Assembly: GCA_039654915.1 (NCBI GenBank)
Contig: CM077595.1
Coordinates: 85,601,501 to 85,665,500, forward strand
Origin: Aquilaria yunnanensis
Lineage: Eukaryota > Streptophyta > Magnoliopsida > Malvales > Thymelaeaceae
Direction of reading: 5' to 3'
DNA length: 64,000 nt
Position numbers and translations under genes: made by a program
Shown: positions 30,227-48,123 of the stretch, piece by piece
Layout of the letters: each line of letters opens with the position of its first letter
Position numbering within the stretch: position 1 is the stretch's first letter
The notes under the pieces: model-generated
The model's input: only the letters and a program-made list of their open reading frames with translations
Database searches by the model: none
Told to the model about the DNA's origin: nothing

Positions 30227-30756
30227 TGTTGACACCCAATTTCGTCCGACAAAAAAAAATCAAACTAAAAAAAAAAAATAAATAAAAAACAAAAATTAAT
30301 TAATTAAAAAAAATATATATATATATTTTATTATTATTATTACTGAAAAATTTTAATTAAGTTAATTAGTTTAAAATACATTTTTGTTTTGTCAGAATTT
30401 AATTAAAAATGATCTATGTGTATAAATGTATGTATGTAATAAAAAGGAAAACTCCATAAAAAATGACAAAATTAAAAAGTTTGGGGTAAAAATGATAAAA
30501 TTGAGAAGTTTTGAGAAAAATTGACAAATTCTGAAAGTTCCAGGAGCATTTGGTAATTTTTCGCGTCAATTTTGGGCCAGACTAACGTTTCTGGCCCAAA
30601 TTAACAGAAAACGACAAAATTGTCAAAATCAGAAGCTTCTGAAGCTTATCCAGAGGATAAGAAACGTAAAGGACTGAAATTGTCATTTTACCAATTTAAG
30701 AGATAAGTTTTGATTTTTTTATTATTTAATAATCAACAGTTCGGCCAGACTTCCTC

Positions 30757-30764
30757 TATAAATA
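30757..30764 (+). promoter_or_regulatory. LTR TATA box
   Basis: CTCTATAAATAGGGG, conserved in the 3' LTR at 46028-46035. A probable start of the genomic RNA lies about 30 bp downstream. Confidence 0.7.
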
Positions 30765-31548
30765 GGGGTTCAAATTTGAGGCTGAACACAGAAAAAAATA
30801 CAAAGAAACCTTAGAGCTCTGTTTAAAAAAACGTGAAAATTACAGCCTTAGTCCATAGCCTCTCCTCCATCTACCTAGAAAGTCCCAAACTTTTGCTTCT
30901 TATGTTTTGACCATCTTCTTCGTTTTTCTTTTTCTTCCGTTTTCGCCGTTCCCCCCGCCGTTTCTCTCCAGTTATCCTGCCGTCCCTTAGTCACCGTCGC
31001 TCCCAGCCGTCGCCGTCACCCCCACGCCGTCACCGTCGCCTCCCCCGCCGTTGCCGTCGCTGTCGCCTTCGCCGTCGGCTCCGCGTTTCCTCCTCCAGCC
31101 GTCCTTTTTTTCCTTCCTCCTCCTGCCGCCTCCGCCGTGCTCCCGCGCCGCCGTCGCCCTGCCCCGCCGCCGTCGCCTCGCCGCCCCTTCGCCTGGCCCA
31201 CCGTCGCCCCCAGCAACCCCACCCCCCTGCCCCTGCGCCCGCGTCGCGTTTTCTTTCCTGAGAATTCAAATTTTAACTTTAAGGGTAAAACTCCTTTTAG
31301 TCCTTCATCTTTTCAATTTCTTTCACTTTGGTCACTAACCTTTTATTTTGTTCTTGCAGAATTAATTACTAACTCTTTTACTTGTTTATTTATTTGTTTA
31401 TTATTGTTATTATTACTAACCCCTTTTTATTATTGTTATTAACAGCTAATCCAACTTTTATTTTTATTGTTATTAACATCTAATCTAACATTACTAACTT
31501 TTATTTTTATTGTTATTAACAACTAACTTTACTAACTTTGCTAACCTT

Positions 31549-31684
31549 TATTATTATTATTACTATCATTATTATTATTATTATTATTATTATTATTATT
31601 ATTATTATTATTATTATTATTATTATTATCATCATCATCATTATTATTATTATTATTATTATTATTATTATTATTATTATTATA
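31549..31684. repeat. (ATT)n microsatellite in 5' LTR
   Basis: ATT repeats interrupted by ATC triplets. The homologous tract in the 3' LTR is about 50 bp longer. It creates spurious poly-Tyr, poly-Ile and poly-Asn frames. Confidence 0.95.
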
Positions 31685-32784
31685 ATTCATGGAAGGTTAT
31701 ACCTCCTATTTATTTATTTTTAAGTGGATGACCAGAAAACCCAACTTTATTCTTATTTATTTATTTATTGTCCTTTAACTTTCCTTTATTTACTTTATGT
31801 GCTTTTTATTTGTTTATTTATTTGCATATGTTATTTAATTTGTGCACTTTTTTTAAGTGGATGGTCAAAAAGCCCCCACTTTATTTTCCTTTTGCTTAAT
31901 TTATGAAAATTTTAATTATGTAGATGGTTAAAACTTATTTCACTTATTTCACCTTTAGTCATAAAATAAAAAAAAATAATAACAAAAAAAAAAAGTTTTT
32001 ATGTGAATAATTAACTTTATATTATTTATTTTTTAGGGCTAACAAAAATCATTTTTTGACAAAAGCCAACCATCTTTTATTATTTTTGGATTACATATTT
32101 TTATTTATTTCTTTTAAAGAAAACATTAAAAAAAAATCATCAATCAATTTTTTTTAAAAGTAATAGTAATTAACAATTTAAGAAAAGTAAAAAAAATAAT
32201 AACAACAAAAATATTAAAAAATTATGATTAAATAAAAAAAAATTTTAATAAAATATTAAATCAATTTCCATATCCGGATGATCCGGCAGGATCCACGGTT
32301 TGGAAAATATCAACTTTTTTTATTGAATAAAAATAAATATAAAGATAAAAATCCATATTTTACGATATAGATTAAATTATTTAAAATTTCATCAAATTCC
32401 GTGTCCGGGTGACTCGGCAGAGTCCATGGTTCGGAATTAAAACTTCCGTGTCCGGGTGACTCGGTGGAGTCCATGGTTCGGAAATATCAAATTTTATACA
32501 AATTAATTATTGAAGACTTTTAAACCCGTCTTAATTTAAAGATCCACATCCGACTAATTCAGTTAAAATTTCTAGTTAGAAAATTAACTGAATATTTTTT
32601 TTAAAGCCAAGCAAAACAAAATTGAAATCAACTAAGGTATCAATTTTTGGGCGTTTTAACAAAGTTGTTTTAACGTAACCGTACTCCCGAACCCCCGAAC
32701 TCTCGCAGACCATATTTTAGGTGTCCAATCGACCTAGGTAAACCGATTGGTGGCGACTCCAGAAAACCCGACATTGCCACAGCT

Positions 32785-32802
32785 TGGCGACTCCGCTGGG
32801 GA
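32785..32802 (+). promoter_or_regulatory. Primer binding site
   Basis: TGGCGACTCCGCTGGGGA starts four bases after the LTR end. Such TGGYGACTCYRCTGGGG sites are known in Tat/Ogre elements, where a tRNA-Arg primer has been proposed; the tRNA identity here is inferred. Confidence 0.75.
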
Positions 32803-45429: not shown

Positions 45430-45519
45430 GTCGGACGAAATTTGGTAACGACTTTGCTTGCATCATGTCCCATGAAGCATGCAAAGGGGGGCAGCTGTTG
45501 ACACCCAATTTCGTCCGAC
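45430..45519. repeat. Inverted repeat flanking the polypurine tract
   Basis: GTCGGACGAAATTTGG (45430-45445) is the inverted copy of the start of the LTR (CCAATTTCGTCCGAC, 45505-45519), with 13 bases perfect. In RNA or single-stranded DNA this would place the polypurine tract in the loop. Confidence 0.75.
45481..45495 (+). promoter_or_regulatory. Polypurine tract
   Basis: GCAAAGGGGGGCAGC directly before the 3' LTR, the plus-strand primer site for second-strand synthesis. Confidence 0.85.
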
Positions 45520-46027
45520 CAAAAAAAAAATTAAACTAAAAAATAAAAATAAAAATAAAAATAAAAATTAATTAATTAAAAAAAAATATATATATATTTT
45601 CTTATTATTATTACTGAAAAATTTTAATTAAGTTAATTAGTTTAAAATACATTTTTGTTTTGTCAGAATTTAATTAAAAATGATATATGTGTATAAATGT
45701 ATGTATGTAATAAAAAGGAAAACACCATAAAAAATGACAAAATTAAAAAGTTTGGGGTAAAAATGAAAAAATTGAGAAGTTTTGAGAAAAATTGACAAAT
45801 TCTGAAAGTTCCAGGAGCATTTGGTAATTTTTCGCTTCAATTTTGGGCCAGACTAATGTTTCTGGCCCAAATTAACAGAAAACGACAAAATTGTCAAAAT
45901 CAGAAGCTTCTGAAGCTTATCCAGAGGATAAGAAACGTAAAGGACTGAAACTATCATTTTACTAATTTAAGAGATAAGTTTTGATTTTTTTATTATTTAA
46001 TAATCAACAGTTAGGCCAAACTTCCTC

Positions 46028-46035
46028 TATAAATA
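46028..46035 (+). promoter_or_regulatory. 3' LTR TATA box
   Basis: CTCTATAAATAGGGG, identical to that in the 5' LTR; could drive outward transcription into the flank. Confidence 0.6.
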
Positions 46036-46810
46036 GGGGTTCAAATTTGAGGCTGAACGCAGAAAAAAATACAAAGAAACCTTAGAGCTCGTTTCAAAAA
46101 ACGTGAAAATTACAGCCTTAGTCCATAGCCTCTCCTCCCTCTACCTAGAAAGTCCCAAACTTTTGCTTCTTATGTTTTGACCATCTTTTTCGTTTTTCTT
46201 TTTCTTCCGTTTTCGCCGTTCCCCCCGCCATTTCTCTCCAGTTATCCTGCCGTCCCTTCGTCGCCGTCGCTCCCAGCCGTCGCCATCACCCCCACGCCGT
46301 CGCCGTCGCCTCCCCCGCCGTTGCCGTCGCTGTCACCGTCGCCGTCCACTCCGCGTTTCCTCCTCCGGCCGTCCTTTTTTTCCTTCCTCCTCCTGCCGCC
46401 TCCGCCGTGCTCCCGCACCGCCGTCGCCCTGCCCCGCCGCCGTCGCCTCGCCGCCCCTTCGCCTGGCCCGCCGTCGCCCCCAGCAGCCCCACCCCCCTGC
46501 ACCTGCGTCGCGTTTTCTTTCCTGAGAATTCAAATTTTAACTTTAAGGGTAAAACTCCTTTTAGTCCTTCATCTTTTCAATTTCTTTCACTTTGGTCACT
46601 AACCTTTTATTTTGTTCTTGCAGAATTAATTACTAACTCTTTTACTTGTTTATTTATTTGTTTATTATTGTTATTATTACTAACCCCTTTTTATTATTGT
46701 TATTAACAACTAATCCAACTTTTATTTTTATTGTTATTAACATCTAATCTAACATTACTAACTTTTATTTTTATTGTTATTAACAACTAACTTTACTAAC
46801 TTTGCTAACC

Positions 46811-46997
46811 TTTATTATTATTATTATTATTATTATTATTATTATTATTATTATTATTATTATTATTATTATTATTATTATTATTATTATTATTATTATT
46901 ATTATTATTATTATTATCATTATTATTATTATCATCATCATCATTATTATTATTATTATTATTATTATTATTATTATTATTATTATTATTATTATTC
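46811..46997. repeat. (ATT)n microsatellite in 3' LTR
   Basis: About 185 bp of ATT with a few ATC interruptions, against about 135 bp in the 5' LTR. Confidence 0.95.
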
Positions 46998-48123
46998 ATG
47001 GAAGGTTATACCTCCTATTTATTTATTTTTAAGTGGATGACCAGAAAACCCAACTTTATTCTTATTTATTTATTTATTGTCCTTTAACTTTCCTTTATTT
47101 ACTTTATGTGCTTTTTATTTGTTTATTTATTTATTTATTTGCATATGTTATTTAATTTGCGCAATTTTTTTAAGTGGATGGTCAAAAAGCCCCACTTTAT
47201 TTTTCCTTTAATTTTCCTTTTGCTTAATTTATGAAAATTTTAATTATGTAGATGGTTAAAACTTATTTCACTTATTTCAGCTTTAGTCATAAAATAAAAT
47301 AATAAATAATAAATAAAATAATAACAAAAAAAAAAGTTTTTATGTGAATAATTAACTTTATATTATTTATTTTTTAGGGCTAACAAAAATCATTTTTTGA
47401 CAAAAGCCAACCATCTTTTATTATTTTTGGATTACATATTTTTATTTATTTCTTGTAAAGAAAACATTAAAAAAAAATCATCAATCAATTTTTTTTAAAA
47501 GTAATAGTAATTAACAATTTAAGAAAAGTAAAAAAAATAATAACAACAAAAATATTAAAAAATTATGATTAAATAAACAAAAAAAATTAATAAAATATTA
47601 AATCAATTTCCATATCCGGATGATCCGGCAGGATCCACGGTTTGAAAAATATCAACTTTTTTTATTGAATAAAAATAAATATAAAGATAAAAATCCATAT
47701 TTTACGATATAGATTAAATTATTTAAAATTTCGTCAAATTCCGTGTCCGAGTGACTCGGCAGAGTCCATGGTTCAGAATTAAAACTTCCGTGTCCGGGCG
47801 ACTCGGTAGAGTCCATGGTTCGGAAATATCAAATTTTATACAAATTAATTACTGAAGACTTTTAAACCCGTCTTAATTTAAAGATCCATATCCGACTAAT
47901 TCAGTTAAAATTTCTAGTTAGAAAATTAACTGAATATTTTTTTTAAAGCCAAGCAAAACAAAATTGAAATCAACTAAGGTACCAATTTTTGGGCGTTTTA
48001 ACAAAGTTGTTTTAACGTAACCGTACTCCCGAACCCCCGAACTCTCGCAGACCATATTTTAGGTGTCCAATCGACCTAGGTAAACCGATTGGTGGTGACT
48101 CCAGAAAACCCGACGTTGCCACA

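What the first reader, a model, noticed from the sequence alone, without database searches (positions are those of the whole stretch)
30227..48123. An RT-less Tat-like retrotransposon that carries a virus-like RNA-binding protein array plus a cytokinin-activating enzyme
Between intact LTRs with GTTCC duplications, gag and protease are followed not by RT-RNase H-integrase but by three copies of a cysteine-rich, basic protein gene and a LOG gene, all in sense orientation. One cargo resembles small viral proteins that handle nucleic acids or counter silencing; the other would raise active cytokinin. Host-gene capture by LTR elements is known, but this pair, with its own promoters, is not something I know to be described. 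It could be a mobile cargo island acting on the host or on its own silencing.
Basis: partly seen in the sequence, partly recalled or inferred. Interest (0 to 1): 0.95.

Follow-up and report, generated by a model that had tools for sequence, protein, structure and literature searches.

The report
Retrotransposon carrying virus-like and cytokinin genes
A jumping element in a plant genome lacks recognisable copying enzymes but carries relatives of a plant-virus protein family that can block gene silencing and of a cytokinin-activating enzyme, and the same two genes sit together in other flowering plants, which hints that some plant retrotransposons carry a kit for manipulating their host.

Summary
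The structure is real. A 17.9-kb LTR element (30227-48123, GTTCC duplications, LTRs 2.4% diverged) has gag, a protease-region ORF, no RT/integrase found, then three tandem cysteine-rich genes and a LOG gene in sense. The three match Pfam Viral_NABP and Carla_C4 above the curated cut-offs. Matching TATA boxes precede copies 2, 3 and LOG. This copy is decayed: only NABP copy 2 keeps a long ORF.

The cargo is no one-off capture. NABP has 99 database relatives; the 7 with organism names are eudicots. A stray plant contig, L001, has NABP 192 bp behind an integrase; a Rhamnella gene model joins the same integrase type to NABP. Rhamnella and Citrus gene models join NABP and LOG. Best reading: a 3' accessory module of Athila-like retrotransposons, here inside an RT-less Ogre/Tat-type shell.

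LOG-like ORFs in such elements are in print; my ten paper searches showed no report of the NABP or the pair. Function is inferred: silencing suppression or nuclear regulation plus local cytokinin activation. The host genome could not be searched.

The parts
30222..30226 (.). target site duplication GTTCC, left
30227..32781 (+). 5' LTR, 2,555 bp
32785..32802 (+). primer-binding-site-like TGGCGACTCCGCTGGGGA, tRNA-Arg type by recall
33784..35241 (+). gag ORF, PF03732
35693..36451 (+). protease-region ORF, weak aspartyl-protease matches
36452..39406 (+). region without a recognised domain; no RT, RNase H or integrase in 15 of 18 ORFs scanned
39407..40152 (+). NABP unit 1 (leader, gene, tail), homologous to L001 1665-2435; no ATG at the homologous start, in-frame stop at 39953
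40223..40235 (+). TATA-type box before NABP 2
40356..40937 (+). NABP 2, 193 aa, PF05515 and PF01623; C-terminus in another frame than most relatives
41050..41062 (+). TATA-type box before NABP 3
41130..41678 (+). NABP 3, in-frame stop at the 9th codon; open from 41232
41718..41998 (+). repeated 50-60-base segments upstream of LOG, also behind NABP 1 and 2
42043..42055 (+). TATA-type box before LOG
42097..42726 (+). LOG gene in one frame, in-frame TGA at codon 40, keeps PGGFGTLGE
43274..45391 (+). tandem arrays, 51-bp and 139-bp units
45483..45495 (+). polypurine tract AAAGGGGGGCAGC
45496..48123 (+). 3' LTR, 2,628 bp
48124..48128 (.). target site duplication GTTCC, right

Best explanation
A non-autonomous LTR retrotransposon without RT or integrase, with an Ogre/Tat-type shell (LTRs, primer site, gag, protease remnant), carries a 3' accessory module whose usual home is behind the integrase of Athila-like elements: a NABP gene, here tripled, and a retro-LOG gene. 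Shown: anatomy, protein families, purifying selection on NABP, recurrence of NABP beside LOG, NABP directly behind an integrase elsewhere. Inferred: the element moved with enzymes from an autonomous relative; NABP is a nuclear, zinc-finger-like nucleic-acid-binding protein that dampens RNA silencing or alters transcription, as flexivirus cysteine-rich proteins do; LOG releases active cytokinin in the same cells; together they favour expression and dividing cells in which a new insertion can be inherited. This copy is now mostly dead.
For:: Viral_NABP in 54 and Carla_C4 in 55 of 58 rows of A1 (57 of the 99 relatives, picked for length, plus the window). L001 has integrase then NABP; its unit is 75% identical in DNA to window copy 1. 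Rhamnella P0067 joins NABP to an integrase end 70% identical to L001's over 111 residues. Rhamnella P0075 and Citrus P0088 each run from NABP into LOG in the window's order; Rhamnella locus tags RR03511 (LOG) and RR03512 (NABP) are consecutive; two equal contig lengths, 4511 and 8723, among 14 NABP and 16 LOG rows of 3-40 kb, chance about 2.5e-4 in a rough simulation; dN/dS 0.19-0.35 in six pairs. P0002 is sister to copy 1 and P0001 to copy 3, so the tripling is older than this insertion (LTR K2P 0.024); of the 120 LOG rows shown, 20 are Reevesia on 14 named chromosomes and 28 are Orobanche; three matching TATA boxes; viral proteins of this kind are silencing suppressors and one a transcription factor causing hyperplasia.
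Against: No second copy of this LTR element was seen; the host genome was not searchable. The window is the only sequence read here that has LTRs, NABP and LOG together. L001 has no LOG match in the bases that follow NABP. Same-contig linkage rests on equal lengths, and equal lengths among shorter rows were set aside as chance. The names Ogre/Tat and Athila rest partly on recalled motifs; there is no RT in the window for a tree. The viral structure match is weak (pLDDT 67.6; best E 0.13), and a viral-contig scan found no relative. LOG and two of three NABPs are broken in this copy; 12 of 120 LOG rows lack PGGxGTxxE and 17 of 99 NABP rows lack the full cysteine pattern. No transcript, enzyme or silencing data.
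Confidence: 0.55

Rival explanations
1. The module is a private accident: a piece of an Athila-like element fell or recombined into an old Ogre/Tat-type copy in place of pol, and the hybrid never moved as a unit.
For: One copy seen; LOG and two NABPs broken; no same-LTR relative with cargo could be looked for.
Against: No LTR pair around the cargo in the repeat list; LTRs only 2.4% diverged while NABP copies are far older (dS 0.47-0.90); close relatives of single copies exist elsewhere.
Confidence: 0.27
2. The NABP genes are endogenous pieces of a flexivirus that integrated and were then swept into retroelements, with no function in them.
For: Pfam families defined on viral proteins; six of the first eight viral structure hits are named silencing suppressors or nucleic-acid-binding proteins (all E 0.13 or worse).
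Against: Purifying selection in six pairs; the same position behind an integrase in two sources; spread over several plant families. A viral origin long ago is not excluded.
Confidence: 0.08
3. NABP and LOG are ordinary host genes that lie by chance inside repeats, or that retroelements captured separately several times.
For: LOG is an old plant enzyme family; gene models are annotated as host genes.
Against: Dispersed LOG copies on 14 named Reevesia chromosomes; NABP next to LOG or integrase in Rhamnella, Citrus and L001; the window LOG has no intron.
Confidence: 0.1

Closest known systems
LOG-type (YgdH) domain in LTR elements of Citrus and poplar (PMC9289625 section 12, citing Steinbauerova 2011)
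   Same: LOG-type domain inside LTR retrotransposons; Citrus also has a NABP-LOG gene model here
   Different: No NABP partner, tripling or RT-less carrier in the section read. The 2011 paper is not held; its abstract is recalled as naming two Athila-like elements with LOGL4 similarity
NABP / cysteine-rich proteins of carla-, allexi-, viti- and mandariviruses (Pfam PF05515, PF01623)
   Same: Domain match above cut-off; basic run beside a cysteine cluster
   Different: Here in plant chromosomes inside LTR elements, not in a virus genome
Athila-type elements with env-like 3' ORFs (PMC7264820)
   Same: Sense ORF behind the integrase, the slot that NABP holds in L001
   Different: A nucleic-acid-binding family protein, not an env-like one
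Orchid Ogre-like elements with an AlkB RNA demethylase (PMC9289625)
   Same: Large Tat-type element with an extra RNA-acting gene
   Different: Other protein; RT-bearing element; activity shown in vitro there
Retand elements with antisense TRP28 ORFs (PMC11963269)
   Same: Long region before the 3' LTR with tandem arrays and accessory ORFs
   Different: ORFs antisense; no sense ORF with a known domain reported; its 600-bp cut-off would miss a 182-aa NABP

Membership tests
LTR retrotransposon | LTR pair, target site duplication, primer site, purine tract | tested here: met
   the tRNA partner of the primer site is recalled
LTR retrotransposon, autonomous | RT, RNase H and integrase | tested here: not met
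   15 of 18 ORFs in 36.45-39.47 kb scanned, no match; no integrase by tblastn
Ogre/Tat lineage | RT phylogeny and additional RNase H | not testable with these tools
   no RT in the element
Ogre/Tat lineage | tRNA-Arg primer site, long LTRs, tandem arrays | tested here: inconclusive
   LTR 2.6 kb and arrays present; tRNA match by recall; gag relatives include pea and vetch
Athila-like element as home of NABP | NABP directly behind an integrase, same sense | tested here: met
   L001 and Rhamnella P0067, not the window; the name Athila rests on recalled motifs
Viral_NABP PF05515 / Carla_C4 PF01623 | profile score above the curated cut-off | tested here: met
   three of three window copies; L001 meets PF05515 and is just under the PF01623 cut-off
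Viral_NABP | fold like viral NABPs | tested here: inconclusive
   pLDDT 67.6; best Foldseek E 0.13
Viral_NABP | nucleic-acid binding, silencing suppression | not testable with these tools
   needs the bench
LOG phosphoribohydrolase | PF03641, PGGxGTxxE and the upstream Arg | tested here: met
LOG phosphoribohydrolase | uninterrupted reading frame | tested here: not met
   in-frame TGA at codon 40; relatives such as P0101 are uninterrupted

The most novel reading that the evidence does not exclude
A lineage of eudicot LTR retrotransposons keeps a host-manipulation module under selection: a protein homologous to flexivirus silencing suppressors in the slot behind integrase, plus a cytokinin-activating enzyme, each with its own promoter in the derivative seen here. 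The module also spread to non-autonomous carriers. It would be a retrotransposon counterpart of a viral virulence kit, and possibly a source or sink of the NABP genes of plant RNA viruses.
Probability: 0.35. Interest if true: 0.87.

Novelty: new variant of a known kind. Interest (0 to 1): 0.66.

Why it matters
Accessory genes of plant LTR retrotransposons mostly have no known function. A recurrent one from a family of viral silencing suppressors, found beside a hormone-activating enzyme, makes it directly testable whether plant retrotransposons counter silencing or reshape cell division. It also bears on where flexivirus NABPs came from, and suggests that many plant gene models called LOG are transposon genes.

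Tried and rejected
Host-genome search for further copies, an autonomous partner and shared LTRs: eleven identical requests to the genome search did not complete.

NABP in viral contigs: 13 pattern matches, none confirmed. LTR pair around the cargo: none in the repeat list, which showed the 20 largest of 21 families. Pol remnants: none in 15 of 18 ORFs; the other three were not scanned. LOG on L001: no real match. Equal contig lengths between NABP and LOG rows under 3 kb (721, 1018, 1514, 1524) were dropped as likely chance; only rows of 3-40 kb entered the simulation, which jitters LOG lengths by 20% and is rough. A conserved second frame in the tail behind NABP was considered; L001 breaks it.

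Window copy 3 was entered in a wrong frame, so its place there is meaningless; redone. The 94.6% LTR identity counts gaps; one search gives 2.4% substitutions. LOG rows are the 120 nearest to the window, so their separation from the Arabidopsis enzymes (support 88/79) is partly by construction.
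Full report
What is there. The element is bounded by LTRs at 30227-32781 and 45496-48123 with GTTCC on both sides. The LTRs differ at 61 of 2,546 ungapped sites (K2P 0.024), about 0.9-1.7 million years at two recalled rates. Behind the 5' LTR lie a primer site, a gag ORF (PF03732, 3e-10) and a protease-region ORF with sub-threshold matches. Then come 3 kb in which 15 of 18 listed ORFs were scanned against Pfam without an RT, RNase H or integrase match. 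'RT-less' rests on those scans and on a tblastn with an integrase; no RT was used as a query.

The cysteine-rich genes. All three match Viral_NABP (PF05515: 1.4e-7, 5.7e-8, 6.1e-6) and Carla_C4 (PF01623) above the curated cut-offs. The search with copy 2 gave 99 relatives among 148 candidates; 49 of 99 are 180-186 aa, 38 exactly 182. Seven rows bear organism names: two Xanthoceras, one Acer, three Rhamnella, one Citrus. In an alignment of 58 rows (57 of the 99, picked for length, plus the window) 54 match PF05515 and 55 match PF01623. 82 of 99 keep CX2CX4CX2-3C. The model of copy 2 is only fair (pLDDT 67.6). Of its 20 viral structure hits none reaches E 0.001; of the first eight (E 0.13-1.2), six are named flexivirus silencing suppressors, RNA-binding or nucleic-acid-binding proteins, one is an unnamed-function betaflexivirus protein and one has no name. 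That is suggestive, not proof.

LOG. The gene is one 630-bp frame with an in-frame TGA at codon 40. It keeps PGGFGTLGE and the upstream Arg and matches Arabidopsis At2g37210 at 1.2e-50. Plant host LOG genes have several introns (recalled), so an intronless gene fits passage through RNA. The search gave 2,980 relatives among 3,074 candidates, 120 listed. Of these 120, 20 are Reevesia models on 14 named chromosomes and 28 are Orobanche; one Orobanche cluster counts 244 members. 108 of 120 keep PGGxGTxxE. In a tree of 124 rows the window LOG and P0101 are sister to the Orobanche rows (97/89), and LOGs linked to NABP fall in three of its large groups; the Arabidopsis enzymes lie outside (88/79, midpoint root). 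The 120 were chosen by similarity to the window, so that split is partly built in.

The pair and its home. Rhamnella P0075 and Citrus P0088 run from NABP into LOG, in the window's order. Rhamnella locus tags RR03511 (LOG) and RR03512 (NABP) are consecutive. NABP P0012 and LOG P0142 share contig length 4511, P0013 and P0108 share 8723; only lengths were seen, and two such matches among 14 x 16 rows have a chance of about 2.5e-4 in a rough simulation. The scan of prokaryote genome contigs confirmed one of 29 pattern matches: L001, 3,330 bases filed under a Nomurabacteria genome, evidently plant DNA. It has an integrase ORF (rve 2.3e-16, H2C2 1.2e-12), NABP 192 bp further on, identical to P0010, and no LOG match. 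L001 1665-2435 is 75% identical to window 39407-40152, leader and tail included (leader 61 of 75 columns, coding 368 of 489, tail 83 of 104). Rhamnella P0067 joins NABP to an integrase end 70% identical to L001's over 111 residues. I call that integrase Athila-like from recalled motifs.

Age and selection. Between the three window copies and L001, dN/dS is 0.19-0.35 in six pairs. P0002 is sister to copy 1 (96% identity, support 96/86) and P0001 to copy 3 (87-88%, 100/98). The tripling is therefore older than this insertion, and its products exist elsewhere, at least as separate sequences; the sources of P0001, P0002 and P0101 are unnamed and may be the same or a related species. Copy 1, copy 3 and LOG of the window are broken.

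Promoters. CATCWCTATAAAT occurs three times in 64 kb, before copies 2, 3 and LOG, with no match in 100 shuffles; the pattern was written after seeing the three boxes, so the shuffle figure overstates its surprise. Repeats D10 and D15 place a similar 50-60-base segment upstream of the same three genes. Copy 1 lacks the box. In L001 the homologous leader starts beside a TGCAG that could be a splice acceptor (my reading). So the integrase-bearing form might make NABP from a spliced transcript and the window form from separate promoters; both are inferences.

How it may work. PMC12172455 (abstract and two sections read) says that viral cysteine-rich proteins of this kind suppress RNA silencing and that one, p12 of chrysanthemum virus B, acts as a transcription factor and induces hyperplasia. 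LOG makes active cytokinin. A plausible joint effect is weaker silencing of the element and more dividing cells. Shown: families, linkage, constraint. Inferred: every functional step.

What is in print. PMC9289625 (abstract, passages and section 12 read) found the LOG-type YgdH domain in LTR element consensuses of two Citrus species, and in poplar with a filter off, citing Steinbauerova 2011, which is not held (abstract recalled). PMC11963269 (parts 1-3 of 5) reports no sense ORF with a known domain behind pol in Retand elements, with a 600-bp cut-off. PMC6317226 (passages) used a 250-codon cut-off. PMC7264820 (part 1 of 3 and passages) and PMC3136472 (passages) showed no such pair or NABP in what I saw. 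Ten paper searches listed no title or abstract reporting NABP in retrotransposons or the pair; the library holds open-licence papers only, and most listed papers were not opened.

Verdict. Real; known in its LOG half; its NABP half and the pair appear unreported within those searches. A new variant of accessory-gene carriage by retrotransposons.

Noticed in passing
window 2-511: A second gag relative, 46% identical to P0221 over 210 columns, at the left edge; no further NABP or LOG match of note in the window.
   Followed up: partly
window 40034-40137 and matching places behind copies 2 and 3; L001 2315-2418: About 100 bases behind the NABP gene are at least as conserved as the coding part (83 of 104 between copy 1 and L001); another frame is open there in some relatives. 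Cause unknown.
   Followed up: partly
window 31548-31687 and 46812-46996: A TTA microsatellite inside the LTR differs in length between the two LTRs (about 47 and 62 units) and gives a spurious poly-Tyr ORF.
   Followed up: no
L001 (DAIEQH010000041.1): Plant retrotransposon DNA filed inside a Nomurabacteria genome; likewise a gag row named Salmonella enterica (P0277). Both look like contamination.
   Followed up: partly
window 49886-50961, minus strand: Remnant of another gypsy-type element: integrase match 22% over 220 columns (E 8e-12) and an integrase-tail-like ORF.
   Followed up: no
rows P0149, P0105, P0213, P0173: Annotated plant LOG models, one called LOGL10 in poplar and one LOG3-like in Primulina among them, group with the dispersed retro-LOGs rather than with the two Arabidopsis enzymes.
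   Followed up: partly
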